Shown: one piece after another, positions 20,945 to 45,417 of the stretch
Numbering within the stretch: the first letter of the stretch is position 1
Layout of the letters: each line of letters opens with the position of its first letter
Origin: Rhizohabitans arisaemae
Lineage (GTDB): Bacteria; Actinomycetota; Actinomycetes; Streptosporangiales; Streptosporangiaceae
DNA: 64,000 nucleotides
Assembly: GCF_025996515.1 (NCBI RefSeq)
Contig: NZ_BLRH01000009.1
Location: 248,001 to 312,000, forward strand
Direction of reading: 5' to 3'
Position numbers and translations under genes: made by a program
The notes under the pieces: generated by a model
Told to the model about the DNA's origin: nothing
Databases searched by the model: none
What the model saw: only the letters and a program-made list of their open reading frames with translations

Positions 20945-21520
20945 ATGCTCCGACGTGTTGTCGCACTCCTGTTCGCCGCGGTGATGTCCTTCGGCGTCGT
21001 CGCCGTCACCGCCGGACCCGCCGCGGCCAATCCCCCCAACGACACGACCCTGGTACCGCGCACCCTGGGCGACATCTGCAAGTCCCTCGTCGACTCCCGG
21101 TCCTACATCGGGCTCTACCGGGGCGGCAGCAGCGTCCCCTGCTACCGGATCCAGAACTCCGTCCCCATCCAGGTGGGACAGATCGGGACCAGGACTGCCT
21201 GCGAGTACGGCAACACCTCGGTGATGCGCGGATACCGGCAGGGGCCGGGTCAGGCTCTGATCTGCGAGTACTACACGGACGTGTTCGAGACCACCTACAG
21301 CCCGGTCTCCGTCGGTGAGTACTGCCGCGCCCAGGTGAACCCGCAATCGAGCGTCGGCCTCTACCGCGGGAACGCCATCGAGTGCTACAACTGGCCGACC
21401 CACGTCGGGAACGGCACCCCCACCGCGGCGTGCCAGTACTTCGCCTCCTTCGGCAACCACACCGTGCTGGGCGCCTGGGCCGGCGGCAGCGAGTCGCTGG
21501 TGTGCCGATTCGCCCGCTGA
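20945..21520 (+). CDS. Secreted two-module Cys-rich protein (copy 1)
   Basis: 191 residues with a clear Sec signal peptide (MLRRVVALLFAAVMSFGVVA, cleavage after the AAA near residue 28). The mature part is two related modules of about 75 residues, each with four cysteines. Both contain a G-D/E-x-C start, a GLYRG motif, C-Y, A-C-x-Y and a final Cys, so eight Cys and probably four disulfides per protein. I do not recognise a named family; a small extracellular carbohydrate- or protein-binding protein is possible. The ATG has GGAGG upstream. The next copy, 21889-22446, is a tandem duplicate. The leader motif suggests co-regulation with the chitinase. Confidence 0.85.
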   Translation: MLRRVVALLFAAVMSFGVVAVTAGPAAANPPNDTTLVPRTLGDICKSLVDSRSYIGLYRGGSSVPCYRIQNSVPIQVGQIGTRTACEYGNTSVMRGYRQGPGQALICEYYTDVFETTYSPVSVGEYCRAQVNPQSSVGLYRGNAIECYNWPTHVGNGTPTAACQYFASFGNHTVLGAWAGGSESLVCRFAR

Positions 21521-21888: not shown

Positions 21889-22446
21889 ATGCTCCGACGT
21901 GTTGTCGCACTCCTGTTCGCCGCGGTGATGTCCTTCGGCGTCGTCGCCGTCACCGCCACACCCGCCGCGGCCAATCCCCCCGGTGAGACAACCCTGGTAC
22001 CGCGCACCCTGGGCGACATCTGCGGCGCCTTCCTTGGGATCTATCAGGGCGGAAACTCCGTATCCTGCTACCGGCGCGAGGGCAGCACCTTGATCCCGGT
22101 CGGACAGATCTCGACCAAGACCGCCTGCGAGTACGGCAACACGTACACGATGCGCGGATACCGGCAGGGCCCGTACGCGGCGCTGATCTGCGAGTACTAC
22201 ACCGAGATCGTGGAGACCACCTACAGCCCGGTCTCCGTCGGCGAGTACTGCCGCGCCCAGGTGAACCCGCAATCGAGCGTCGGCCTCTACCGCGGAAACG
22301 CCATCGAGTGCTACAACTGGCCGACCCACCTCGGGAACGGCACCCCCACCGCGGCGTGCCAGTACTTCGCCTCCTTCGGCAACCACACCGTGCTCGGGGC
22401 CTGGGCCGGCGGCAGCGAGTCCCTCGTATGCCGATTGGCCCGCTAA
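21889..22446 (+). CDS. Secreted two-module Cys-rich protein (copy 2)
   Basis: 185 residues, paralogue of the preceding secreted gene. The first about 23 residues of the signal peptide are identical and the second module is almost identical (from YSPVSVGEYCRAQ to the C-terminus only two residues differ). The first module has diverged and lost six residues after G-D-I-C. All eight cysteines and both GL/GI-Y motifs are kept. The uneven divergence suggests gene conversion in the 3' half or selection on the first module. GGAGG lies before the ATG. It converges on the DUF305 gene. Confidence 0.85.
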   Translation: MLRRVVALLFAAVMSFGVVAVTATPAAANPPGETTLVPRTLGDICGAFLGIYQGGNSVSCYRREGSTLIPVGQISTKTACEYGNTYTMRGYRQGPYAALICEYYTEIVETTYSPVSVGEYCRAQVNPQSSVGLYRGNAIECYNWPTHLGNGTPTAACQYFASFGNHTVLGAWAGGSESLVCRLAR

Positions 22447-23699: not shown

Positions 23700-23985
23700 G
23701 TGTACGTCGGATCCCTCGGCGTCTTCGACGAAATCCTCGCGGTGAACGTCAACCTGTTCTGGGTACGGCCCCGCGGAGCGGGAACTCCGGCCGGTCGCCG
23801 ACCTGCTCCGGCCGGACGGGCGCCCGACCTTCCGCTTCGACGGCCCGGACGCCGACAAGCTCGCGCGGTTGGGCGTCACCCTCACCGAACGCCTGATCCG
23901 GGCCGGCCTCCGCGACCTGACCCCACGAAAGAACGCGAACCCGGCGCTGCTCGCGGTGACCGGTCTCCGCCCTGCCGCCCTCTGA
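23700..23985 (+). pseudogene. Fragment of a SAM methyltransferase, frameshifted
   Basis: Translation gives FDEILAVNVNLFW in one frame, then after a shift near 23760 YGPAERELRPVADLLRPDGR and continuing to LLAVTGLRPAAL and a stop at 23985. This matches the C-terminal third of small class I methyltransferases (V-N-V-N-L-F-W followed by L-R-P-x-G). The N-terminal half with the SAM-binding motif is absent, so the gene is truncated and shifted. The 365 bases after it (to 24350) contain no gene but hold the operon promoter region. Confidence 0.6.
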
Positions 23986-24171
23986 GCGGCCCGGTGCCCT
24001 GAACCCCGATGCCCCGGTGCCCCGAACACCGGGGCATGGGCCTACCCGGGGCCGGAGCGCCGCACCGGCGGATCCGCCCGGCGCCGGTCCGGGGCTTTCG
24101 CCGCCGATCGGCCGTACCCCGCCATGGGTCGTGGAAGGCATCGGAACGCCCTACCCGATCGAGGCGCCATG

Positions 24172-24238
24172 TGTATCCAATCCCACATTTCTACGGCACC
24201 AGAGATCTATTGACCCACTAATTAGAGGGTGAATAATG
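24172..24238 (+). promoter_or_regulatory. Promoter and TGTATCCAAT motif before the organosulfur-type operon
   Basis: An AT-rich island contains TTGACC (24210-24215) and ATAATG (24233-24238) with 17 bases between, a good sigma-70-like promoter. TGTATCCAATCCC starts at 24172, about 30 bases upstream of the -35 box. The same 10-mer occurs twice (35569 and 35634) upstream of the NMT1-type lipoprotein gene, which suggests a shared operator. Confidence 0.5.
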
Positions 24239-24350
24239 TAGCCAGATCTAGCGGAACAGTCGATGACCTGGGCTTTGACGGGACCTGGGCGGACCCTTCA
24301 CCCGCCGCACGCCCGATCGTCCCGCCGATACGTTCCAGAGAGGAATCACC

Positions 24351-25409
24351 GTGAGCGAATCCCCCCTGCGGATCTCCCTGCGCCTCCCGCACAGCTACGC
24401 CGTCGCCGGCCCCAAGGCGATCCGCCAGGTCGCCGAAGCCGCCGAGGCCTACGGCTTCTACGGCGTGTCGGTGCAGGACCACATCCTGGTCGACCCCAAG
24501 GCCGCGCCCTGCGGGGGCGACGGCGACAACCGCAACCTCTATGAGGCGCTGCAGACCCTCGGCTGGGTGGCCGGGGTGACCGAACGGGTCAAACTGATCA
24601 CCACGGTGCTGGTCGCGGGTTTCCGCCACCCGGTGATGCTCGCCAAGGAGACCGCTTCCCTGGACGCCCTGTCCGGCGGTCGGCTCATGGTCGGCGTCGG
24701 GGTCGGCGCGGGCCGTACCCGGCAGTCCGCCGAAGGCTTCAAACTCGCCCATCACGCGACGATCGCGACAAGGGAGTTCGACGCGCTCAACGTGATGGGG
24801 CACCGCGGCAAGCTCGCGGACGAGAACCTGCAGATCCTGGACGCCATGTGGACCCAGGACTCGGCGAGTTTCCACGGCGAGATCTATCAGTTCGAGGACA
24901 TGGACGCCTACCCCAAGCCGGTGCAGAGGCCACGTCCCCCGCTGCTGGTGGGCGGACGTTCGGAGGCCGCGATCCGCCGGGCCGCCCTGCTCGCCGACGG
25001 CTGGTGCCCCAGCCACGAAAGCCCGCAGCATTTCGCGGAGAACCGCCTCAAGTGCATCGCGATCGCCACCGCGGCCGGCAAGCCGGCACCGAAGTGGTGG
25101 GGCACCAACATCGACCTCGCCGTGGCGCGGACCGATGAGAAGGCCCAGGATTTGATGGGCCGTTGGTTCGGCAAGATGTTCGAGACCCGGCAGGCGATGG
25201 TCGACGCCACCCTGACCGGAACCCCGGAGACGATCCTGCGCCAGCTCGGCGTCTGGCGCCGCGCCGGGCTCAACCTGGCGGACGTCAAGATCACACCGCG
25301 TGATCTGGACGAGACCCTGGAGCAGATGCGGATCCTCGGTGAGGAGGTCATCCCGGCGTTGCCCGGTCTGGACGCGGAGCTCGGCCCGGACACCCGGGAC
25401 AGCCGATGA
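24351..25409 (+). CDS. LLM-class flavin/F420-dependent oxidoreductase
   Basis: 352 residues from a GTG preceded by GAGAGGA. It has the bacterial-luciferase-like TIM barrel: an N-terminal ISLRLPHSYAV strand, ETASLDALSGGRLMVGVGVG, the ENLQILDAMWTQDSASFHG segment and PRPPLLVGGRSEAAIRRAALLADGW. This family includes F420-dependent dehydrogenases and FMNH2-dependent monooxygenases such as alkanesulfonate monooxygenase SsuD. It is first in a four-gene operon with 4-base overlaps. With a CoA-transferase and a thiol dioxygenase downstream, a desulfonating or oxidising step on a sulfur compound is a reasonable inference, not shown by the sequence. Confidence 0.88.
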   Translation: MSESPLRISLRLPHSYAVAGPKAIRQVAEAAEAYGFYGVSVQDHILVDPKAAPCGGDGDNRNLYEALQTLGWVAGVTERVKLITTVLVAGFRHPVMLAKETASLDALSGGRLMVGVGVGAGRTRQSAEGFKLAHHATIATREFDALNVMGHRGKLADENLQILDAMWTQDSASFHGEIYQFEDMDAYPKPVQRPRPPLLVGGRSEAAIRRAALLADGWCPSHESPQHFAENRLKCIAIATAAGKPAPKWWGTNIDLAVARTDEKAQDLMGRWFGKMFETRQAMVDATLTGTPETILRQLGVWRRAGLNLADVKITPRDLDETLEQMRILGEEVIPALPGLDAELGPDTRDSR

Positions 25410-26272
25410 CCGTGATCACCGTGGGCATGCGGCTGCCCGACCCCGGCCACCTGGCGCCGCTCCTGATCGGGACGGACCGCGGTTTCTACGCCGAGGAAGG
25501 GCTGGAGGTGCGGACCGTCGTGACCGAGGACCTGGTCCCCGGGATCCTGGACGGCGGCCTGACCTTCGCCGACATGCCTTCGACGGCGCTCCTCGGCGAC
25601 GCCGGGAAGCTCCCGATCCGCCTGATCTCCGGGTGGCACGGCCGGCGCGACTACTGGATGGCCGTCGCCCCCGGGGTGTCCGTCCCGGCCGACCTCGCCG
25701 GTCGCCGGGTGATCCTCGGCGCCCCGTCCGACCAGCCGGTTCGGCTCCGGCTCCTCGCCGAGGCGGGTTTCCCGCTCGACGGCGTGGACTGTGAGCCGGT
25801 CAACCCGCCCGGCGGGTCCGACGTCTGGATCCGGCAGCTCCTGTCCGGGGAGGCGGGCATGGCCCCGATCTTCCTCCGGCATCGGCGGGAGATCCTCGAC
25901 GCCGGGTGCCGGCTCGTCCTCGACGTGTCCAAGGACTGGCCGTCCAACTCGGTCGGCGCCTCGACGGCCTTCCTCGCGGCCAACCCCGCCGTGGCCACCG
26001 GCTTCCTGCGGGCCACGCTGCGCGCCATGGAGATCTGGATGGACCCGGGGAACGCCCCGGACGTGCTCGAGATCTGGGCGAAGCACGGCATCCGGATCAC
26101 CCCGGAGCAGCGGGACACCTACGTCGAGGGCTTTCTGCGTCCGTACGGGCGCGCGGACCTGACCCTGCGCGAGGACGAGTTCGCCGAGCTGATCGCCATG
26201 GCGGGCCTGCCGCAGGTGCCCTTCTCGGCCTACACCGATCCGCGCTACCTGCAGGAGGCGCTCCGCCGATGA
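25406..26272 (+). CDS. NMT1/THI5-like protein without signal peptide
   Basis: 288 residues with the periplasmic-binding-protein type 2 fold of the NMT1/SsuA group: PGHLAPLLIGTDRGFYAEEG at the start, FADMPSTALLGDAGKLPIRL, VPADLAGRRVILGAPSDQPVR, then helical ASTAFLAANPAVATGFLRAT. It begins MTVITVGMRLPDPG and has no signal peptide or lipobox, so it should stay in the cytosol. It could be a cytosolic binding protein or an enzyme built on this fold, as THI5 is. No permease or ATPase is adjacent. The start overlaps the oxidoreductase stop (ATGA), and its own stop overlaps the next start. Confidence 0.8.
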   Translation: MTVITVGMRLPDPGHLAPLLIGTDRGFYAEEGLEVRTVVTEDLVPGILDGGLTFADMPSTALLGDAGKLPIRLISGWHGRRDYWMAVAPGVSVPADLAGRRVILGAPSDQPVRLRLLAEAGFPLDGVDCEPVNPPGGSDVWIRQLLSGEAGMAPIFLRHRREILDAGCRLVLDVSKDWPSNSVGASTAFLAANPAVATGFLRATLRAMEIWMDPGNAPDVLEIWAKHGIRITPEQRDTYVEGFLRPYGRADLTLREDEFAELIAMAGLPQVPFSAYTDPRYLQEALRR

Positions 26273-27453
26273 CGGGTCCTCTCCGCGATCTGCTCGTGGT
26301 CGACCTCGCCCGGGTGCTGTCCGGGCCGTTCGCCGCGATGCTCCTCGGCGACCTCGGCGCCCGGGTCGTCAAGGTGGAGCGTCCCGGCGACGGGGACGAC
26401 ACCCGGAGCTGGGGGCCGCCGTTCGTGCGGGGCCAGAGCACGTACTTCATGTCGATCAATCGCAACAAGGAGTCCCTCGAACTCGATTTGAAGGACCCCG
26501 GCGACATCGAGGTCCTCCACGAGCTGCTCCGGCGTGCGGACGTGGTGATCGAGAACTTCCGGCCGGGGGTGATGGAACGCCTGGGCCTCGGCCATCGGGC
26601 GCTGCTCGCGCTGAACCCCGCCCTGGTGATCGTGTCGATCACCGGTTTCGGGCACGACGGGCCGGAGTCCTCGCGCAGCGGCTACGACCAGATCGTCCAG
26701 GGTGAGGCGGGGATCATGAGCATGACCGGGAACGGCCCCGGTGAGCCGGTCAAGGTCGGGGTGCCGATCGGGGACGTGCAGGCCGGGATGTTCGCCGCGC
26801 TCGGCGCCCTCGCCGGGCTGCACGAACGCACGCGCACCGGGAAGGGCGGCGTGGTCCGCACCTCGCTGCTGGCCGCGCTCGTCTCCACCCACGTGTTCCA
26901 GGGCACCCGCCAGCTGCTCGCGGGCGAGACGCCGGAACCGTCCGGCAACCGCCATCCGACCGTGGTGCCGTACGGCGCGTACGACTGCCGCGACGGAATG
27001 ATCCAGATCGCGGTGGGCAGCGACGGGCTGTGGCGGCGTTTCGCCCCGCTGGTCGGCGTCGACCCCGACGATCCGCGGTTCGCGTCCAACGCCGACCGGG
27101 CCGCCTTCCGGGAGGAACTCGACGCACTGATCGTCCCGGCCTTCGCCACGGAATACACCGACGTGTGGCTGGCCCGCTTGGCGGAGGCCGGGATCCCCGC
27201 GGGGGAGATCAAACCGCTCGACCGCGTCTACGCCTCGGAGCAGGTCCGATCCCAGGGTCTGGTGGTCCAGGTCGAACACCCCGAGATCGGCGTCGTCCCC
27301 CTGCCCGGGCCCGCGCTCAGGTTCGACTCCTTCCCCGGGCTCCGGCATCGTCCGCCGCCCCTGCTCGGCGAGCACTCCTCGGCCCTGCGCAGGTGGCTGG
27401 CCACCGGCGGGGAGGCGGGCGCCGGACCGGACCGGGCCGGTGAACCGGCGTGA
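26269..27453 (+). CDS. Class III CoA-transferase (CaiB/BaiF)
   Basis: 394 residues, full-length for family III CoA-transferases. It starts GPLRDLLVVDLARVLSGPFA and AMLLGDLGARVVKVERPGDGD, with NRNKESLELDLKDP and DVVIENFRPGVMERLGLG. The catalytic Asp region is SGYDQIVQGEAGIMSMTG followed by GVPIGDVQAGMFAALG. It moves CoA between an acyl-CoA donor and a free acid. In known 3-mercaptopropionate-type pathways, a CoA-transferase of this family activates 3-sulfinopropionate, which fits the thiol dioxygenase encoded next. ATGA and GTGA overlaps with both neighbours indicate strict co-translation. Confidence 0.93.
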   Translation: MTGPLRDLLVVDLARVLSGPFAAMLLGDLGARVVKVERPGDGDDTRSWGPPFVRGQSTYFMSINRNKESLELDLKDPGDIEVLHELLRRADVVIENFRPGVMERLGLGHRALLALNPALVIVSITGFGHDGPESSRSGYDQIVQGEAGIMSMTGNGPGEPVKVGVPIGDVQAGMFAALGALAGLHERTRTGKGGVVRTSLLAALVSTHVFQGTRQLLAGETPEPSGNRHPTVVPYGAYDCRDGMIQIAVGSDGLWRRFAPLVGVDPDDPRFASNADRAAFREELDALIVPAFATEYTDVWLARLAEAGIPAGEIKPLDRVYASEQVRSQGLVVQVEHPEIGVVPLPGPALRFDSFPGLRHRPPPLLGEHSSALRRWLATGGEAGAGPDRAGEPA

Positions 27454-28676
27454 TCACGGAGTTCACGATCGACGCGCCCGGCCGCGCGAACGCGCTGGGG
27501 CCGGAGACGACGGCCCGGCTCGACCGAGCCCTCGCAGACGCCGTCGCGCAGGGATCCGCCGCTTTCGTCCTCCGGGCGGCGGGCGGCACCTTCTGCTCGG
27601 GGTTCGACCTGGGCGACCTCCCCCGGCTCGGCGACGCCGACTTGCTCGCCCGGTTCGTCACGATCGAACGGCTGCTTGAGCGGATTCGCACCGCGCCGCT
27701 GCTCACCATCGCCTGCGTCGGCGGCCCGGCGGTCGGCGCGGGCGCCGATCTCGTGGCCGCCTGCGACTACCGGCTGGGCACCGGGGCGGCCTCGTTCGCC
27801 TTCCCCGGGCCCCGCTTCGGGCTGCTGCTCGGCACCGCGCACCTGACCCGGCTCGTCGGCGGGCAGCCCGCCCGCGACCTGCTGGTACGGCGGCAGCGGG
27901 TCGACGTCGAGGAGGCCCTCCGGATCGGCCTGCTCAGCCACCGGGTGGACGAGCTCGGCCCGTTCGCCGCCGAGCTCGCGGCCGCGGCCGCCGCGCTGGA
28001 TCCGATCACCCTGCGCGAGCTGCTGGCCGTCACCCGGGGCCGGGCGACCGCAGACCCGCTGTCCACCCTTGTCGCGTCCGCGGCGGACCCCGGTCTGGCC
28101 GACCGGGTCCGCGCCTACCGAGGAGAGAGCCAGATGCAACAGCTGATCAACGGAGTCGCCGCCGCGGTCGCCGAGGGCGGCGGCGAGCAGGCGGTGACCG
28201 GACGGGTCGCGAAGGTGCTGCGCGCCGCGCTCGCCAAGGGCCTGTCGCTTCCGCCCGGCGTCATGGTCCCCCACCCCGAGCGATACGTCATGTATCCGCT
28301 CCACGTCGCCCCGGACGGTTCGTTCTCGATCGCCTCGGCCGTGTGGAACGTGGGTCAGCGGACCCCGATCCACGACCACGGCGTCTGGGGGGTCGTCGGT
28401 ATCCACTCGGGGGTCGAGCACGAAGTCAGGTACGCGCCTCCGGCCCCGGCGGGTGCGCCGCGGATGATCGACGAGAGCCTGTGGCGGCCGGGGGAGGTCA
28501 CGGTCTGCTGTACCACGGACCAGGACCTCCACCAGGTGGCGAGCGGCTCGGACGAGCCCTGCGTGGGCATCCACGTCTACGGCGGGGACATCGGGACGAT
28601 CCAACGCAGGTCATACCATCCGGAGACCGGGGAGGTCGGCTACTTCACCTCGGCGTGGACGACCCCGGCCTCCTGA
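27450..28676 (+). CDS. Enoyl-CoA-hydratase-like / thiol-dioxygenase fusion
   Basis: 408 residues. Residues 1-228 form a short crotonase fold: AAGGTFCSGFDLGDLPRLG as the first oxyanion-hole segment and GGPAVGAGADLVAACDYRLG as the second. The usual catalytic Glu positions appear as Asp (GAGAD) and Gly (FAFPGPRFG), so hydration is doubtful. Residues 229-408 are a cysteine/3-mercaptopropionate-dioxygenase-type cupin: VWNVGQRTPIHDHGVWGVVG with the H-x-H iron ligands, and DLHQVASGSDEPCVGIHVYG with the third His. An ATG at 28134 preceded by GAGGAGAGAG could give the dioxygenase alone. As last gene of the operon it suggests thiol oxidation to a sulfinate. The fusion is unusual. Confidence 0.88.
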   Translation: MITEFTIDAPGRANALGPETTARLDRALADAVAQGSAAFVLRAAGGTFCSGFDLGDLPRLGDADLLARFVTIERLLERIRTAPLLTIACVGGPAVGAGADLVAACDYRLGTGAASFAFPGPRFGLLLGTAHLTRLVGGQPARDLLVRRQRVDVEEALRIGLLSHRVDELGPFAAELAAAAAALDPITLRELLAVTRGRATADPLSTLVASAADPGLADRVRAYRGESQMQQLINGVAAAVAEGGGEQAVTGRVAKVLRAALAKGLSLPPGVMVPHPERYVMYPLHVAPDGSFSIASAVWNVGQRTPIHDHGVWGVVGIHSGVEHEVRYAPPAPAGAPRMIDESLWRPGEVTVCCTTDQDLHQVASGSDEPCVGIHVYGGDIGTIQRRSYHPETGEVGYFTSAWTTPAS

Positions 28677-29058: not shown

Positions 29059-29541
29059 ATGAAAGGCAGACTGCAACTGGCGCTTGCGGTCGCGGCAGGC
29101 TACTTCCTCGGGCGCCGGCACAAACTGCGCTGGGCCACGGCCCTGGCGGCCGCCGGGGCGGTCGGCGGGATCGGCCACGTCGCCGGCGGCGGCATCCTCG
29201 GCAAAGGCGCCAAACTGCTCGGCGCGTCCCCCGAGATGGAGGAGATGGTCGGCCGCCTCCGCACGGAGCTGACGGAGGTGGGCAAGGCGGCGGCGGTGGC
29301 CGCGGCCGGCAAGCAGATCGACACGCTGACCACCAAGCTCCACGATCGGGCCGAATCCCTGCGTACGCCCGCGGTGCCCGCTCCCCGCGCCGAATCCGAG
29401 GAGGGGGCCGAGGAGCCGGAGTACGACGAATACGACGAGTACGAGGAGGGGGCCGAGGAAGAGGAGCCGGAGACCCGGAGGCCGAAGGCCAAGACCCGCC
29501 GCGGACGTCCGGTCCGGACCATCAGCCGCTCGGGGAGGTGA
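29059..29541 (+). CDS. gvpY: Gas vesicle-associated protein GvpY-like
   Basis: 160 residues, first gene of the gas vesicle operon. The N-terminus (LQLALAVAAGYFLGRRHKLRWATALAAAG) is hydrophobic and helical with a basic break. A helical, charged middle follows, then a very acidic Tyr/Glu tail (EEPEYDEYDEYEEGAEEEEP) ending in a basic patch. This build matches the poorly studied GvpY of actinomycete gvp clusters. Its function is unknown; assembly or membrane contact is possible. The assignment rests mainly on position before the SRPBCC gene and on overall build. AAGGAG lies upstream. Confidence 0.7.
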   Translation: MKGRLQLALAVAAGYFLGRRHKLRWATALAAAGAVGGIGHVAGGGILGKGAKLLGASPEMEEMVGRLRTELTEVGKAAAVAAAGKQIDTLTTKLHDRAESLRTPAVPAPRAESEEGAEEPEYDEYDEYEEGAEEEEPETRRPKAKTRRGRPVRTISRSGR

Positions 29542-29546
29542 GGTCG

Positions 29547-30632
29547 GTGGCCACCCAAGCCAGTCGCGGACCGGCCGGCAAGGCGACCGGGAAACTCGGC
29601 ACCGCCCTGCTCAAGCACGAACTCCGCAACCTCGCCGGGGCCATGCTGGAGAGAAGGCTCTCCTCCCTCACCGAGAAACTCACCGCGATGTCCGGACGCC
29701 TCACCGACTACGCGGACGGCAACGGCAAGAGCCTGATCGGCGCCGTCACCGGATCCGGCGGCAAGGGCGGGAAGCTCGGCGGCCTGACCTCGCTGCTGGC
29801 CACGGGGGCCAAGGCCGCGTTCAAGGGCGCCCTCGGCAAAGCCGGCAAGGGGGGCGGCAAGCAGAAGGTCACCAACATCGTGGAGTCGATCGACGTCGGT
29901 GCCCCGCTGCGGATCGCGTACCACCAGTGGACCGAGTTCCGGGACTTCCCGAGCTACATGAAGAAGGTGGAGAGCGTCCAGCAGAAGTCGGACGAGAAGC
30001 TGAACTGGAAGGCCCAGGTGTTCTGGTCGCACCGCACCTGGGAGTCCCACATCCTGGAGCAGGTCCCCTACGACCGGATCATCTGGCGTTCCAAGGGCGC
30101 CAAGGGCCACGTGGACGGGGCCGTCACCTTCCACGAGCTGGCGCCGAACCTCACCCGGATCCTGGTGGTCCTCGAATACCACCCGCAGGGTTTCTTCGAG
30201 CACGTCGGCAACATCTGGCGTGCGCAGGGCCGGCGGGCCCGCCTGGAGCTCAAGCACTTCGAACGCAACCTCATGATCAAGACCATGCTCCATCCCGAGG
30301 AGATGGCCGAGAACGGCTGGCGCGGTGAGATCCACGACGGCGAGGTCGTCAAGGACCACGAGACCGCCCTCCGCGAGGAGAAGGAGAAGACCCCGCGGAC
30401 GGAGAAAGCCGAGCGTGAGGAACCCGAAGAGGTCGAGGAAGAGGCATACGAGGAGGCCGAAGGGGGCGAACCCGAGGAGCCGGAGAAGGCCAAGGAGGCC
30501 AAGGCCCGGAAGACCACGCGGGTCGAGGAGGAACACCGGCCGCCCCGGCAGCGCGGCAGGAGCGAGGCCGAGGACGACCGGCCGGCCCGACGACCGGTAC
30601 GCCGCAGGACCGTGAGCACCCGCGGCACCTGA
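29547..30632 (+). CDS. gvpZ: SRPBCC-domain gas vesicle protein GvpZ-like
   Basis: 361 residues from a GTG at 29547 with GGGGAGGTGAGG upstream, 5 bases after gvpY. Residues about 110-265 form an SRPBCC (polyketide cyclase/START-like) domain: [54 protein letters not shown], and [19 protein letters not shown] Gly/Lys-rich region precedes it, and a long highly charged Glu/Lys/Arg tail of about 100 residues follows. The open frame extends to 28938, but that part is out of register with coding signals. This matches GvpZ of actinomycete clusters; the role is unproven. The charged tail is longer than I would expect. Confidence 0.8.
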
Positions 30633-30666
30633 CGTCCGGCCGGACCAACACGGCAGGAGGAAGGGA

Positions 30667-31086
30667 ATGACCGTTCAGCCCGCCACCGGAGGAGTGGCCC
30701 GGCGTCCGTCGTCCGGCAGCCTGGCCGATGTGATCGACACGATCCTGGACAAGGGGCTGGTGATCGACGCCTACGTCCGGGTCTCGCTGGTGGGGATCGA
30801 GCTTCTCACCATCGACGCGCGGATCGTCGTGGCGAGCGTGGACACCTATCTGCGCTTCGCCGAGGCCGTGAACCGGCTGGACCTGGCGGAGACGGGACAC
30901 CAGCAGGGGCTGCCGGAGCTCGTGGAGAACATGACCCAGCAGGTGAGCAGCCGCAAGGGCAAGGGTGTCGTCCAGGGAGCCCTGGAGGGCGCCCAGGAGA
31001 AGCTGCACGATCTCGTCGGCGACTCCGACGAGGAGGAGCCCGCGGCCCCGTCCGGCCGGCGGCGGCATCGGGAGGACAGGCGATGA
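30667..31086 (+). CDS. gvpA: Major gas vesicle structural protein GvpA
   Basis: 139 residues. The conserved GvpA core is [20 protein letters not shown], then [20 protein letters not shown] and [16 protein letters not shown], which forms the coil-alpha-beta-beta-alpha subunit that builds the hollow protein shell. The C-terminal about 60 residues are charged, as in other actinobacterial GvpA proteins. The start follows CAGGAGGAAGGG. It is the best-conserved member of the cluster, and it overlaps gvpF by 4 bases. Confidence 0.95.
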
Positions 31087-31889
31087 CGTCCCAGACCGCC
31101 AAGCCGCGGCACACCGCCGCGAGCACGAACCAGGGCTGCTACGTCTACGGCATCGTGCCGGCCGACGTGGAGGTCGAACCCGGCACGCCCGGGGTGCACG
31201 GCCCGTCGTCCGAGGTCGGCCTGGTCACCCACGGGGAGATCGGCGCCCTGGTCAGCGAGGTCCCGCTGGATCGCCCGCTGGGGACACCGGACAGCCTCAC
31301 CGCGCATCAGCGCCTGCTCGACGAGGTCGCCGCCGAGGTGCCCGTACTCCCCATGCGCTTCGGCGCGGTGATGTCGAGCCCGCAGGCCGTCGTCCAGGAG
31401 CTGCTCACCCCCTATCACGAGGAGTTCCGCACCGCGCTGGCGGAGCTGGAAGGGCACGCCGAGTACGTGGTCAAGGGCCGGTACGTCGAACGCCACCTGC
31501 TTGAAGAGGTGCTTGAGGAGAATCCGGAGGCCCGGCGCCTGCGGGAGGAGATCCGGGAGCTGCCCGAGGACGCGGGCCGGGAAGCGCGAATCGAGCTGGG
31601 TGAACTGGTGAACCAGGCGGTCGCCGCGAAACGGGACGCCGACACCAGGGAGATCGCCGAACGACTCGTACCGCTCAGCGTCCTGGTCTCCCCTCGGGAG
31701 CCCTCCCACGAGCAGGACGCCGTCCATCTGGCCCTCCTGGTGGCCGACGACCGGCGCGCGGACCTGGAGCGGACCGTCGACGAGTTCGCCAGGCGCTATC
31801 GGGGGCGGGTCGACCTGTGGCTGCTCGGGCCGATGGCGCCGTACGACTTCGTCGTGTCGTCGAAACCGGGTGATGAGGAATGGGACTGA
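31083..31889 (+). CDS. gvpF: Gas vesicle protein GvpF
   Basis: 268 residues of the GvpL/GvpF family, accessory proteins that contact GvpA during vesicle nucleation. The two-domain pattern is seen: a ferredoxin-like N-terminal half beginning [17 protein letters not shown], with [26 protein letters not shown] and [20 protein letters not shown], and a second half ending [17 protein letters not shown] Glu-rich helix ([20 protein letters not shown]) joins them. The start overlaps the gvpA stop (ATGA), and its end overlaps the gvpG start by 10 bases. Confidence 0.93.
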
Positions 31890-32152
31890 TCTCGCTTCTG
31901 GTCACCTGGCCCGCCGCGCCGATCCGGGTGGTGATCCGCCTCGGCGAACTGATCGAGGAGCAGATCGAGCGCGAGGCCCACGACCCCGCGGCGGTCCGGC
32001 GCCGCCTGGAGGAGATCGAGCGATCCCGCGCCGCCGGGCTCATCTCCGCCGAAGAGCAGGAGGAAGCCGTTGAGCAGGTCCTTCAGGAGATGGTCGGCCG
32101 ACCGGCCCTTATGGACGATCCCGAGGCAGGTGCGGAGGGAGAACGGAGGTGA
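31880..32152 (+). CDS. gvpG: Gas vesicle protein GvpG
   Basis: 90 residues. It begins [20 protein letters not shown], the usual GvpG start, followed by LGELIEEQIEREAHDPAAVR and a coiled charged helix RRLEEIERSRAAGLISAEEQ. GvpG is a small accessory protein needed for vesicle formation. It overlaps gvpF by 10 bases, and gvpO follows after 4 bases. Confidence 0.93.
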   Translation: MGLISLLVTWPAAPIRVVIRLGELIEEQIEREAHDPAAVRRRLEEIERSRAAGLISAEEQEEAVEQVLQEMVGRPALMDDPEAGAEGERR

Positions 32153-32156
32153 GGTC

Positions 32157-32492
32157 ATGCCGACCCGGCAACGCCGTCCCGAACCCACGGACTCCGGGAC
32201 ACGCGCCGAACCTCGTCACGGGGCGCTGTCCGCGGCGGCCGCCGGTGAGACCGGACTCCGGCACATAGCCGAGCTGACCGCCCGCGAGGTCGAAGGGGTC
32301 ACGCTCGTGAAGCCGGCGGAGGAGGGCTGGCTGGTGGACGTGGAGGTGGTCGAAGATCGGCACATCCCGTCCTCCGGCGACGTCCTGGCCCTGTACGAGG
32401 CGGAGCTGGACTCCGAAGGCGACCTGCTCTCCTACCGCAGGCTCCGGCGCTACCGGCGAGGCAGCGGCGACGACGGCGGGGCGACGCGATGA
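32157..32492 (+). CDS. gvpO: Gas vesicle protein GvpO
   Basis: 111 residues from the ATG at 32157 with GGAGGTGAGG just before it. The C-terminal GvpO domain is TAREVEGVTLVKPAEEGWLV, DVEVVEDRHIPSSGDVLALY and EAELDSEGDLLSYRRLRRYR, with a polar N-terminal extension. GvpO is required for vesicle production in haloarchaea and may act as a regulator. In Streptomyces-type clusters gvpO heads the operon; here it sits between gvpG and gvpJ. The stop overlaps gvpJ (ATGA). Confidence 0.92.
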   Translation: MPTRQRRPEPTDSGTRAEPRHGALSAAAAGETGLRHIAELTAREVEGVTLVKPAEEGWLVDVEVVEDRHIPSSGDVLALYEAELDSEGDLLSYRRLRRYRRGSGDDGGATR

Positions 32493-32869
32493 TCGAGCCG
32501 AGACGTCCGGAACCCATGACCGGCCGGGCCTACTCCGGCTCGGTGTCGCGGCGCGAACCGGCGAACCTCGGCGACATCCTGGAGCGGGTCCTGGACCGGG
32601 GGATCGTGATCGCCGGGGACATCCGGGTGAACCTGCTCGACATCGAGCTGCTCACCATCAAACTGCGCCTCATCGTCGCCTCGGTGGACACCGCCAGGGA
32701 ACTCGGCATCGACTGGTGGGAGCACGATCCCTGGCTCACCGGCGGCAAGCGGGACCTGCTCCAGGAGAACCGGCGGCTCCGGCGCCGGATCGCCGCCCTG
32801 GAGGAGGGTCGTCCCGCACTCGAACCGATCCAGGGCCACGCGGAGGAGGTGAGGGAGGATGACCGCTGA
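32489..32869 (+). CDS. gvpJ: GvpA-family minor protein GvpJ
   Basis: 126 residues with a GvpA-like core: NLGDILERVLDRGIVIAGDI, RVNLLDIELLTIKLRLIVAS and VDTARELGIDWWEHDPW. A Leu/Arg coiled tail follows. The IDWW motif marks the GvpJ branch, minor shell proteins thought to shape the vesicle tips. It overlaps gvpO by 4 and gvpL by 11 bases. Confidence 0.9.
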   Translation: MIEPRRPEPMTGRAYSGSVSRREPANLGDILERVLDRGIVIAGDIRVNLLDIELLTIKLRLIVASVDTARELGIDWWEHDPWLTGGKRDLLQENRRLRRRIAALEEGRPALEPIQGHAEEVREDDR

Positions 32870-33644
32870 CACCGGCGTCTATCTCTACGCGGTCGCGCAC
32901 GACCTCGGCATCAGGGAACCGGAAGGGCTGACGGGGGTCGACGGGCGGGCCGTCCGGGTGATCCCGCACGCGGACCTGGTGGCCTACGTGAGCACCGTCC
33001 CGCTGGATCGGTTCGGGGAGGAGGCCCTCCGGCGGTCCATGGAGGATCTGGACTGGCTGGACGCGACCGCGCGCGCCCACCACCACGTCGTCGAAACGGT
33101 GGCGGAGGCGGCCCCGGTCGTCCCGGTGCGGCTGGTCACGGTGTACGGCGGCGAGGGTCCGGTGAAGGAGCTGCTCGATCGGCGGCACGACGACTTCGTC
33201 ACGGTGCTGGCCCGGGTCACCGGACGCCAGGAGTGGGGGGTCAAGGCCTACGCCCGTGCCCCGGCCTCCGCCGGCGCGCCGGGACGGAAGGCGGAGGAGG
33301 CGACCGTCGGCCCGGGTACCGCCTATCTCCGGCGGCGGCGCAGCGACCTGCACGAGCAGGAGGAGGAGAGGCGGCGGGCCGCCGTGGGCGCCGAGCGGAT
33401 CCACGAGGTCCTGGCCGCCTCCGCGGTGGCGAGCCGGCTGCATCGCACCCAGGATCCCCAGCTGTCCGGGCGCACCGAGTGGATGGTGCTGAACGGGGCC
33501 TACCTCGTCGACCGGGACCGGGCCGAGGCGTTCCGCCGCGTCGTGGACGGGCTGTCCGAGCCGGGGGTCGAAGTCCAGCTCACCGGCCCGTGGACCCCGT
33601 ACTCCTTCACCGTCCTGGACGAGGCGGACGGAGAACGCCCATGA
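32859..33644 (+). CDS. gvpL: Gas vesicle protein GvpL
   Basis: 261 residues, second GvpL/F-family member. GVYLYAVAHDLGIREPEGL opens the protein; VAYVSTVPLDRFGEEALRRS, VPVRLVTVYGGEGPVKELL and a second half with LNGAYLVDRDRAEAFRR and GPWTPYSFTVLDE follow. A Gly/Ala-rich charged linker with RRRRSDLHEQEEERRRAA is in the middle. It probably works with GvpF in early assembly. The ATGA overlap to gvpS shows coupling. Confidence 0.92.
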   Translation: MTADTGVYLYAVAHDLGIREPEGLTGVDGRAVRVIPHADLVAYVSTVPLDRFGEEALRRSMEDLDWLDATARAHHHVVETVAEAAPVVPVRLVTVYGGEGPVKELLDRRHDDFVTVLARVTGRQEWGVKAYARAPASAGAPGRKAEEATVGPGTAYLRRRRSDLHEQEEERRRAAVGAERIHEVLAASAVASRLHRTQDPQLSGRTEWMVLNGAYLVDRDRAEAFRRVVDGLSEPGVEVQLTGPWTPYSFTVLDEADGERP

Positions 33645-33871
33645 CGCTCCCCGATACCCGCGGTGGCGTGCTCGCCGCCGAGGGTCGGTTGCCCTCCGAG
33701 CGGGTGGCGCTGGTCGACCTGCTGGATCGGCTGCTGGCGGGCGGGGTGGTGGTGAGCGGGGACCTGGTCCTGTCCATCGCGGACATCGACCTCGTCCGGA
33801 TCTCGGTACGTGCGTTGATCATGTCGGTCCGGGAGTCGGGCCTCGGGGACGATGAGCCGTTCGAGGGGTGA
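33641..33871 (+). CDS. gvpS: GvpA-family small protein GvpS
   Basis: 76 residues from the ATG at 33641, overlapping the gvpL stop by 4 bases. A short GvpA-like domain, VALVDLLDRLLAGGVVVSGD then LVLSIADIDLVRISVRALIM, makes up most of the protein. By position before gvpK and by size it corresponds to GvpS of actinomycete clusters; the naming of GvpJ versus GvpS here is by position and motif only. Confidence 0.85.
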   Translation: MTLPDTRGGVLAAEGRLPSERVALVDLLDRLLAGGVVVSGDLVLSIADIDLVRISVRALIMSVRESGLGDDEPFEG

Positions 33872-34223
33872 ACCGGGGTGGGCCCGGCCGGTGCGGAGAG
33901 GCCGGGCGGGCCGGCTCAGGATCGAGGCCGACCGGCAGGCGGTGGAGCGTGACCTCTCCCGGCTGGTGCTGACGCTGGTGGAGCTCGTCCGGCAGCTTGT
34001 GGAGCGCCAGTGCCTGCGCAGAATGGATCGGGGAGACCTGTCGGAGGAGCAGATCGAGACGCTGGGCGTGACCCTGATGCGGCTGGAGGAGGCGATGGCC
34101 GACCTGTGCGACCGCTTCGGGCTCGACCCGTCCGACCTCAACATCGACCTGGGGCCGCTCGGCCCGCTGCTCCCCCGGCAGGAGCGTCGCGCCGCCCGGC
34201 TGGAGCCGCCCGGCGACCTCTGA
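33852..34223 (+). CDS. gvpK: Gas vesicle protein GvpK
   Basis: 123 residues. The GvpK domain is visible: RLRIEADRQAVERDLSRLVL, TLVELVRQLVERQCLRRMDR, GDLSEEQIETLGVTLMRLEE and the terminal FGLDPSDLNIDLGPLGPLL. GvpK is a conserved accessory protein needed for proper vesicle formation. It overlaps gvpS by 20 bases and ends the operon. The first about 20 residues are Arg/Gly-rich and a GTG around 33876 could be an alternative start. The 198 bases after it show no gene. Confidence 0.93.
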   Translation: MSRSRGEPGWARPVRRGRAGRLRIEADRQAVERDLSRLVLTLVELVRQLVERQCLRRMDRGDLSEEQIETLGVTLMRLEEAMADLCDRFGLDPSDLNIDLGPLGPLLPRQERRAARLEPPGDL

Positions 34224-44022: not shown

Positions 44023-45417
44023 GTGACCCAACCGGTTGAGACAGACGTCCAGCGGGCGCAGACGGCTCTCAGTACCGCGGCCGCCAAAAACCTGGCCACC
44101 ACCACCAAATCCGTCCCCCAAATCCAGGAGACCACCTCCCGCTGGCTCCTGCGCATGCTCCCCTGGGTCCAGGTCACCGGCGGCACCTACCGCGTCAACC
44201 GCCGCCTCACCTACGCCATCGGCGACGGCCGCGTCAGCTTCACCACCGCCGGGGCCACCGTCCAGGTCATCCCCGCCGAACTCGTCGAGATCCCCCTCCT
44301 GCGCGGATACGACGACCCCGACACCCTCCAAGCCCTGGCCACCCGCTTCACCCAGCACGAAGTCGAAGCCGGCCACACCCTGGCCCACACCGGCCAGACC
44401 GCCGACCGGATCTACCTCATCGCCCACGGCAAGATCACCAAAACCGGCGCCGGCCCCTACGGCGACCAGGCCACCCTCGGCGTCCTGGCCGACGGCGACC
44501 ACTTCGGCGACCACGCCCTCACCGACGAGACCGCCACCTGGCCCTACACCGTCACCACCCTCACCGCCTGCACCCTGCTCAGCCTCCCCCGCCAGGCCTT
44601 CGCCGAACTCACCGACCAATCCCCCACCCTCCAAGCCCACCTGCGCAACCTCCACGACAACCCGCCCAAACCCCACAACCGCCACGGCGAAGCCGCCATC
44701 GAGCTCGCCGCCGGCCACACCGGCGAACACAACCTCCCCGCCACCTTCGCCGACTACGAGACCACACCCCGCGAATACGAACTCAGCGTCGCCCAGACCG
44801 TCCTGCGCATCCACAGCCGGGTGGCCGACCTCTACAACCACCCGATGAACCAGACCGAGCAGCAGCTCCGCCTCACCATCGAAGCCCTGCGCGAACGCCA
44901 GGAACACGAACTCGTCAACAACCGCGAGATCGGCCTGCTCCACAACGCCGACCTCCGCCAGCGCCTGCACCCCCGCACCGGCCCACCCACCCCCGACGAC
45001 CTCGATCATCTGCTGAGCCGCCGCAGACGGACGAACTTCTTCCTGGCCCACCCGCAGGCGATCGCGGCGTTCGGCCGGGAGTGCAACCGGCGCGGGGTCT
45101 ACCCCCAGAGCGTGGAACTCGACGGGCACAGGATCCCCGCCTGGCGCGGCGTCCCCGTCCTGCCCTGCAACAAGATCCCCATCACCAAGACCCGCACCAC
45201 CTCCATCCTGGCCATGCGCACCGGCCAGGAGAACCAAGGCGTCATCGGCCTCCACCAGACCGGCATCCCCGACGAATACCAGCCCAGCCTCTCGGTCCGC
45301 TTCATGGGCGTCGACGACAAAGCCGTCATCTCCTACCTGGTCAGCGCCTACTACAGCGCCGCCGTCCTGGTCCCCGACGCCCTCGGCATCCTGGAGAACG
45401 TCGAACTCGGCCACTGA
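44023..45417 (+). CDS. Family 2B encapsulin shell protein with cNMP-binding domain
   Basis: 464 residues from the GTG at 44023. It starts [20 protein letters not shown] and [20 protein letters not shown], then [20 protein letters not shown], the pattern of family 2 HK97-fold encapsulins. A cyclic-nucleotide-binding-like insertion at about residues 105-200 ([41 protein letters not shown]) marks family 2B. The rest of the HK97 fold includes [39 protein letters not shown] and the terminal [20 protein letters not shown]. It assembles into a protein shell that houses a cargo enzyme, probably the prenyl synthase encoded next. Upstream in-frame TTG/GTG codons exist. Confidence 0.93.

What the first reader, a model, noticed from the sequence alone, without database searches (positions are those of the whole stretch)
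24172..28676. Predicted thiol/organosulfur catabolic operon of four overlapping genes
Four genes overlap by exactly 4 bases: LLM oxidoreductase, NMT1-fold protein, class III CoA-transferase and a protein ending in a thiol dioxygenase domain. Known 3-mercaptopropionate breakdown uses a thiol dioxygenase to make 3-sulfinopropionate, then a family III CoA-transferase to form its CoA ester. LLM monooxygenases include SsuD, which acts on alkanesulfonates. I infer an uptake/oxidation/CoA-activation pathway for a thiol or sulfonate. The canonical acyl-CoA-dehydrogenase-type desulfinase is absent, so the sulfur-release step would be new.
Basis: partly seen in the sequence, partly recalled or inferred. 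Interest (0 to 1): 0.8.

Follow-up and report, generated by a model that had tools for sequence, protein, structure and literature searches.

The report
Thiol-acid breakdown operon with odd crotonase
A four-gene bacterial operon, probably for breaking down a sulfur-containing acid, joins a thiol-oxidising enzyme to an unusual crotonase that in many bacteria sits next to it and may be the missing sulfur-releasing step.

Summary
The four genes are real: three successive 4-base overlaps behind one promoter-like site. Its first ~225 residues are a crotonase, fused in frame to the thiol dioxygenase.

The crotonase-dioxygenase pairing is conserved: 26 of 29 dioxygenase-clade loci from public genomes (Nocardioides, Nocardia, Streptomyces, Solirubrobacterales, Bacillaceae) carry this crotonase nearby, usually as a separate gene overlapping by 4 bases. 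Cupriavidus, Bradyrhizobium and Polaromonas carry the trio in another order.

The crotonase has Asp and Gly where hydratases need Glu144 and Glu164, in every copy examined. The dioxygenase keeps Fe ligands, Tyr159 and Arg168, but has Met for Gln63 and Gly for Ser155.

In Cupriavidus the neighbours match the known Advenella 3-mercaptopropionate cluster, with the crotonase in place of the desulfinase Acd. I therefore propose thiol to sulfinate to sulfinyl-CoA, with crotonase-catalysed sulfite release. That last step is inferred; the same crotonase/CoA-transferase pair also occurs without a dioxygenase.

'Uptake' is not supported: the NMT1-like protein has no signal peptide and no permease. The oxidoreductase is F420-type, not SsuD. 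The window's CoA-transferase lies outside the trio's clade. Substrate unknown.

The parts
24210..24237 (+). promoter-like site TTGACC-16-AATAAT; its spacer and flanks form a palindrome TATTGACCCACTAATTAGAGGGTGAATA (24208-24235), a possible operator
   Evidence: 1 promoter-like site found against 0.1 expected; palindrome 89% complementary; sequence unique in the genome at up to 3 mismatches
24351..25409 (+). gene 1: LLM-class oxidoreductase, 352 aa, F420-type (TIGR03619)
   Evidence: no hit at E<=1e-40 in 150 related genomes
25406..26272 (+). gene 2: SBP-fold (NMT1/THI5-like) protein, 288 aa, no signal peptide, probably cytosolic
26269..27453 (+). gene 3: class III CoA-transferase, 394 aa, outside the clade of the CoA-transferases that accompany this crotonase elsewhere
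27450..28676 (+). gene 4: crotonase-thiol dioxygenase fusion, 408 aa
27450..28133 (+). crotonase half; Asp at the Glu144 position and Gly at the Glu164 position of rat enoyl-CoA hydratase ('D/G crotonase')
28134..28676 (+). thiol dioxygenase half; possible own start ATG 28134 after AGGAGAG; three Fe-binding His, Tyr159, His157, Arg168 kept; Gln63->Met, Ser155->Gly, Phe79->Ala (Av3MDO numbering)

Best explanation
A small catabolic operon for an organosulfur acid. Inferred route: the thiol dioxygenase half of ORF4 oxidises a thiol bearing a carboxylate to its sulfinate with O2; the class III CoA-transferase puts CoA on the carboxylate; the D/G crotonase half of ORF4 then breaks the C-S bond of the sulfinyl-CoA, using the crotonase oxyanion hole, and releases sulfite and an ordinary acyl-CoA. 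It thus takes the place of the acyl-CoA-dehydrogenase-type desulfinase Acd. The F420-type LLM and the cytosolic SBP-fold protein would act earlier, making the thiol from an unknown precursor; this is a guess. Shown here: gene content, the fusion, the conserved trio, the active-site residues, and positional replacement of Acd in Cupriavidus. Inferred: every reaction and the substrate.
For: Crotonase next to the dioxygenase in 26 of 29 loci that were fetched with the dioxygenase alone, spanning Actinomycetota and Bacillota, plus Pseudomonadota plasmid/chromid loci. Iron ligands and the carboxylate-binding Arg168 conserved throughout the complete sequences of the clade (roles from PMC8050391). 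D/G signature in all crotonases of this type examined, including 3isa, and in only 1 of 10 crotonases of the window's genome. Loss of both catalytic Glu argues against hydratase activity (both essential in AcuH, PMC5651017). Cupriavidus cluster: CoA-transferase, Gln-type dioxygenase, D/G crotonase, TctC, CMD/AhpD-type protein, against Advenella CoA-transferase, Acd, Mdo, AhpD, TctC, TctC (PMC5373536): the same set with Acd replaced. AhpD-type genes also lie near five of the actinobacterial trios. No acyl-CoA dehydrogenase found within the trio in any locus.
Against: The D/G crotonase/CoA-transferase pair also occurs without a thiol dioxygenase: with a Rieske oxygenase, with an LLM only in Rhodococcus JS3073, or with no oxygenase in Caballeronia. 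Its reaction may therefore not be sulfinate-specific. The window's own CoA-transferase lies outside the clade that travels with this crotonase. Ser155->Gly is not among the substitutions reported for characterised small-molecule thiol dioxygenases (PMC10966181), so activity cannot be assumed. Release of a beta-sulfino group by a crotonase has no direct precedent that I know of; an alpha-sulfino group would be chemically easier.
Confidence: 0.5

Rival explanations
1. Thioether cleavage first, as in 3,3'-thiodipropionate breakdown: the CoA-transferase activates a thioether acid, the crotonase splits off the thiol by beta-elimination, and the dioxygenase oxidises the released thiol; sulfite release happens elsewhere.
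For: In Variovorax TBEA6 two enoyl-CoA hydratases in the mdo/act/acdA cluster are essential for growth on thiodipropionate but not on 3-sulfinopropionate, and Ech-20 is stabilised by TDP-CoA (PMC6370202). Six clusters here carry a second crotonase of a different (Val/Glu) type beside the D/G one.
Against: The D/G crotonase lacks the Glu pair used for elimination and hydration. The window has only the D/G type. In Cupriavidus the D/G crotonase stands where Acd stands in Advenella.
Confidence: 0.2
2. CoA-transferase plus D/G crotonase form a general CoA-cycling lyase pair (logic of formyl-CoA transferase/oxalyl-CoA decarboxylase) that removes CO2 or another group from an acid; the dioxygenase is one of several front ends that supply different substrates.
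For: The pair occurs with thiol dioxygenase, LLM, Rieske oxygenase or none, and its CoA-transferases form one clade (support 0.995). Methylmalonyl-CoA decarboxylase is a crotonase whose reaction needs no alpha-proton abstraction (own knowledge).
Against: Does not by itself explain why the thiol dioxygenase is nearly always adjacent in Actinomycetota. The window's CoA-transferase is outside that clade.
Confidence: 0.2
3. The NMT1-like protein is the sulfur-releasing enzyme, a cytosolic SBP-fold desulfinase like DszB.
For: It lacks a signal peptide, and DszB (2de2) is among structural matches (Z 10.4, rmsd 13.3, 224 aligned, 20% identity).
Against: DszB ranks 40th, below Thi5 and many binding proteins, and no DszB appears in the profile search. 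Model confidence is modest (pLDDT 67). No SBP-fold gene of this kind is in the Nocardioides/Nocardia LLM-type operons, which use an Opp-type transporter.
Confidence: 0.04

Closest known systems
3-mercaptopropionate / 3-sulfinopropionate cluster of Advenella mimigardefordensis DPN7 (MIM_c31380-31430; PMC5373536)
   Same: class III CoA-transferase and thiol dioxygenase adjacent; in the Cupriavidus relative also AhpD-type and TctC genes
   Different: desulfinase Acd (acyl-CoA dehydrogenase fold) absent; a D/G crotonase is present instead; the window also has an F420-type LLM and an SBP-fold protein, and its dioxygenase is not Gln-type
3,3'-thiodipropionate cluster of Variovorax paradoxus TBEA6 (PMC6370202)
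   Same: mdo, CoA-transferase and crotonases in one cluster
   Different: acdA present there; the crotonases are described as acting before 3-mercaptopropionate; their residues were not compared here
3-mercaptopropionate dioxygenase (Gln-type thiol dioxygenase: 4tlf/3uss, 6xb9, 4qma)
   Same: fold, three His ligands, His157, Tyr159, Arg168
   Different: Gln63->Met, Phe79->Ala, Ser155->Gly in the window and nearly throughout its clade
AcuN-AcuK acrylate module of DMSP degraders (PMC13104084, PMC5651017)
   Same: CoA-transferase paired with a crotonase
   Different: AcuH/AcuK-type hydratases need both Glu; D/G crotonases have neither
3isa, putative enoyl-CoA hydratase/isomerase, no function assigned in the PDB record
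   Same: closest solved crotonase (2.7e-32) with the same D/G residues
   Different: no dioxygenase fusion; genome context not examined

Membership tests
small-molecule thiol dioxygenase (CDO_I) | three His iron ligands | tested here: met
   H90, H92, H142 equivalents present in the window and in all complete relatives
small-molecule thiol dioxygenase (CDO_I) | Ser-His-Tyr (SHY) motif, or Thr/Asn/His in place of Ser | tested here: not met
   Gly at the Ser position across the window clade; His and Tyr kept; accepted variants as listed in PMC10966181
Gln-type 3-mercaptopropionate dioxygenase | Gln at position 63 | tested here: not met
   Met in the window; Met, Leu, Thr, Asn or Val in relatives
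Gln-type 3-mercaptopropionate dioxygenase | Arg168 for the substrate carboxylate | tested here: met
enoyl-CoA hydratase (crotonase acting as hydratase) | catalytic Glu144 and Glu164 | tested here: not met
   Asp and Gly in the window and in every D/G crotonase compared
class III CoA-transferase | CoA_transf_3 match over the whole length | tested here: met
   3.8e-122, profile 1-366 of 366
class III CoA-transferase | CoA transfer to a sulfinate | not testable with these tools
   needs an assay
3-sulfinopropionate pathway (Advenella type) | acyl-CoA-dehydrogenase-type desulfinase Acd in the cluster | tested here: not met
   no acyl-CoA dehydrogenase match in the window or inside the related trios; nearest ones several kb away in 4 loci
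SsuD alkanesulfonate monooxygenase | score above the TIGR03565 cut-off | tested here: not met
   67.3 bits against 518.2; TIGR03619 F420 family is met instead
ABC transporter substrate-binding protein | signal peptide or lipobox, with permease and ATPase | tested here: not met
   no transporter genes in the operon
DszB-type SBP-fold desulfinase | DszB-like fold and catalytic residues | tested here: inconclusive
   2de2 at rank 40 among many SBPs, Z 10.4; catalytic residues not compared with a tool

The most novel reading that the evidence does not exclude
The D/G crotonase is a previously undescribed CoA-dependent desulfinase, a non-homologous replacement of Acd that, with a Met/Gly-type thiol dioxygenase and a CoA-transferase, defines a second, widespread bacterial route from mercapto acids to sulfite.
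Probability: 0.35. Interest if true: 0.75.

Novelty: new variant of a known kind. Interest (0 to 1): 0.55.

Why it matters
Only one enzyme type (Acd) is known to me to release sulfite from sulfinyl-CoA intermediates. A crotonase doing it would explain how bacteria without Acd in such clusters complete mercapto-acid breakdown, would give the D/G crotonases (including the orphan structure 3isa) a function, and would point to a thiol dioxygenase class with a changed substrate pocket and a broken SHY motif. The gene fusion in this window links the two enzymes physically and gives a compact construct for assays.

Tried and rejected
Uptake by the NMT1-like protein: rejected, no signal peptide and no transporter partners.
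DszB-like desulfinase: not supported beyond the shared fold.
AcuK-type acrylate hydratase: rejected on residues.
SsuD-type desulfonation: rejected on family score.
Fusion protein structure: the AlphaFold model gave a confident crotonase half but a poor dioxygenase half, so it was not used for fold searches or active-site geometry.
Direct repeats marking an island next to the tRNA-Pro gene: none of 16 bases or more shared with the upstream flank.
The first protein alignment used a wrong strand and was replaced.
Not tested: whether an Acd-type desulfinase is encoded elsewhere in the window's genome.
Full report
1. What is there. Four ORFs on the + strand, 24351-28676, overlap by 4 bases at three successive junctions. 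A sigma-70-like site, TTGACC-16-AATAAT, lies at 24210-24237 (1 found, 0.1 expected). It overlaps a palindrome that occurs nowhere else in the genome at up to 3 mismatches. No regulator gene is adjacent. The genome is an 8.3 Mb draft in 63 contigs.

2. ORF4 is a fusion: residues 1 to ~225 are a crotonase (ECH_1 3.3e-22; best PDB match 3isa 2.7e-32), followed by a thiol dioxygenase (4qma 2.3e-27, 3uss 8e-25, 6xb9 3e-24). In relatives the two are usually separate genes whose ATGA start/stop overlaps; in the window the ATG is still there after AGGAG, but it is in frame with the crotonase and followed by CAA, so the stop is gone. None of the 26 loci with both has them in one frame. A sequencing error at this point cannot be excluded.

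3. Conservation. A scan of 84,980 species genomes with the dioxygenase domain alone gave 29 loci: mostly Nocardioides and Nocardia, with Tamaricihabitans, Streptomyces, Solirubrobacterales, Neobacillus and Fredinandcohnia. In 26 the crotonase lies within about 1.3 kb, and the crotonase and dioxygenase genes overlap by exactly 4 bases in most. A CoA-transferase precedes the crotonase in most. About 20 loci share all or most of a larger operon: NtaA-type LLM, Opp-type ABC transporter, SsuD-like LLM, CoA-transferase, crotonase, dioxygenase, alpha/beta hydrolase, flavin reductase. Three loci (Streptomyces, Nocardia flavorosea, Nocardioides currus) have instead an SsuABC-like transporter, two CoA-transferases plus a shorter CoA-transferase-like gene, two crotonases, ADH, ALDH and a TPP enzyme. 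Plasmid/chromid records of Cupriavidus, Bradyrhizobium and Polaromonas hold CoA-transferase, dioxygenase and crotonase in that order. In the window's own order, four genomes have a related dioxygenase (49-54% identity) with no crotonase found beside it.

4. Residues. In Azotobacter 3MDO numbering (PMC8050391), the window clade keeps His90, His92, His142, His157, Tyr159 and Arg168, but has Met (rarely Leu, Thr, Asn, Val) for Gln63, Ala/Val for Phe79 and Gly for Ser155. A published survey lists Thr, Asn and His as replacements for that Ser, not Gly (PMC10966181). The crotonases all show Asp for Glu144 and Gly for Glu164, in the contexts GAG.D and [FM]PG. Both Glu are essential in the acryloyl-CoA hydratase AcuH (PMC5651017). 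Only 1 of the 10 crotonases in the window's genome has this pair.

5. Function. In Advenella the order is CoA-transferase, Acd, Mdo, AhpD, TctC, TctC (PMC5373536). In Cupriavidus campinensis it is CoA-transferase, Gln-type dioxygenase, D/G crotonase, TctC, CMD/AhpD-type protein. The crotonase stands in for Acd. No acyl-CoA dehydrogenase was found inside any trio (by tblastn with four queries, so a very divergent one could be missed). The most economical reading is that the crotonase is the desulfinase; this is inference. Chemically (own knowledge), loss of SO2 from an alpha-sulfino acyl-CoA would give the enolate that crotonases stabilise, without a base to take the alpha proton; a beta-sulfino substrate is harder to rationalise.

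6. Limits. The same crotonase with the same clade of CoA-transferase occurs without thiol dioxygenase: with a Rieske oxygenase, an AtoE-type transporter and a class III alcohol dehydrogenase (Paraburkholderia; similar in two Cupriavidus), with an LLM only (Rhodococcus JS3073), or with neither (Caballeronia, G092). A broader role for the pair is a live rival. In the window the CoA-transferase belongs to another clade, with two genome paralogues and one from N. lianchengensis, so even this operon is a mosaic. Its LLM is F420-type, and the SBP-fold protein is cytosolic by sequence; neither has a counterpart of the same subfamily in the other operons that I could identify. Their roles are open.

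7. Verdict. Observation largely right, interpretation partly right. It is a new variant of the known mercapto-acid/CoA pathways, with one specific, testable and possibly novel step.

Noticed in passing
L120 (Paraburkholderia graminis plasmid), L133/L134 (Cupriavidus), L122 (Rhodococcus JS3073), L135 (Caballeronia NK8), L129 (G092): D/G crotonase plus the same clade of class III CoA-transferase without thiol dioxygenase, paired with a Rieske oxygenase, an LLM, or no oxygenase.
   Followed up: partly
L073, L076, L090, L096, L099, L119: These clusters hold a second crotonase with Val at position 144 and Glu at 164, complementary to the D/G one; the two might work in sequence or together.
   Followed up: partly
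L040, L041, L042, L043: Relatives of the dioxygenase (49-54% identity) follow a dihydrofolate-reductase-family-like gene, in three of the four with a LysR gene close by, and no crotonase was found next to them.
   Followed up: no
L088 8786-10549 (Nocardia jiangxiensis): An open frame joins an LLM start to the dioxygenase, with the CoA-transferase and crotonase missing: a deletion fusion or an assembly error.
   Followed up: no
window 20945-21520 and 21889-22446: Two tandem paralogues (191 and 185 aa) with secretion-signal-like N-termini and no Pfam match.
   Followed up: no
window 29059-34223: Gas vesicle gene cluster (Gas_vesicle and GvpL/GvpF proteins and others) directly downstream of the operon, preceded by an AT-rich gap at about 28750.
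   Followed up: no
window 23984-24056 (-): tRNA-Pro (cgg) gene just upstream of the operon; no long direct repeats were found for this flank.
   Followed up: partly
window 44049-44555 (-): Rfam match to Sernc350, a Saccharopolyspora antisense RNA, 104.2 bits, opposite a predicted gene at 44023-45417.
   Followed up: no
window 24169-24213: A 14-codon reading frame (MCIQSHISTAPEIY) ends inside the operator-like palindrome; it may be chance.
   Followed up: no
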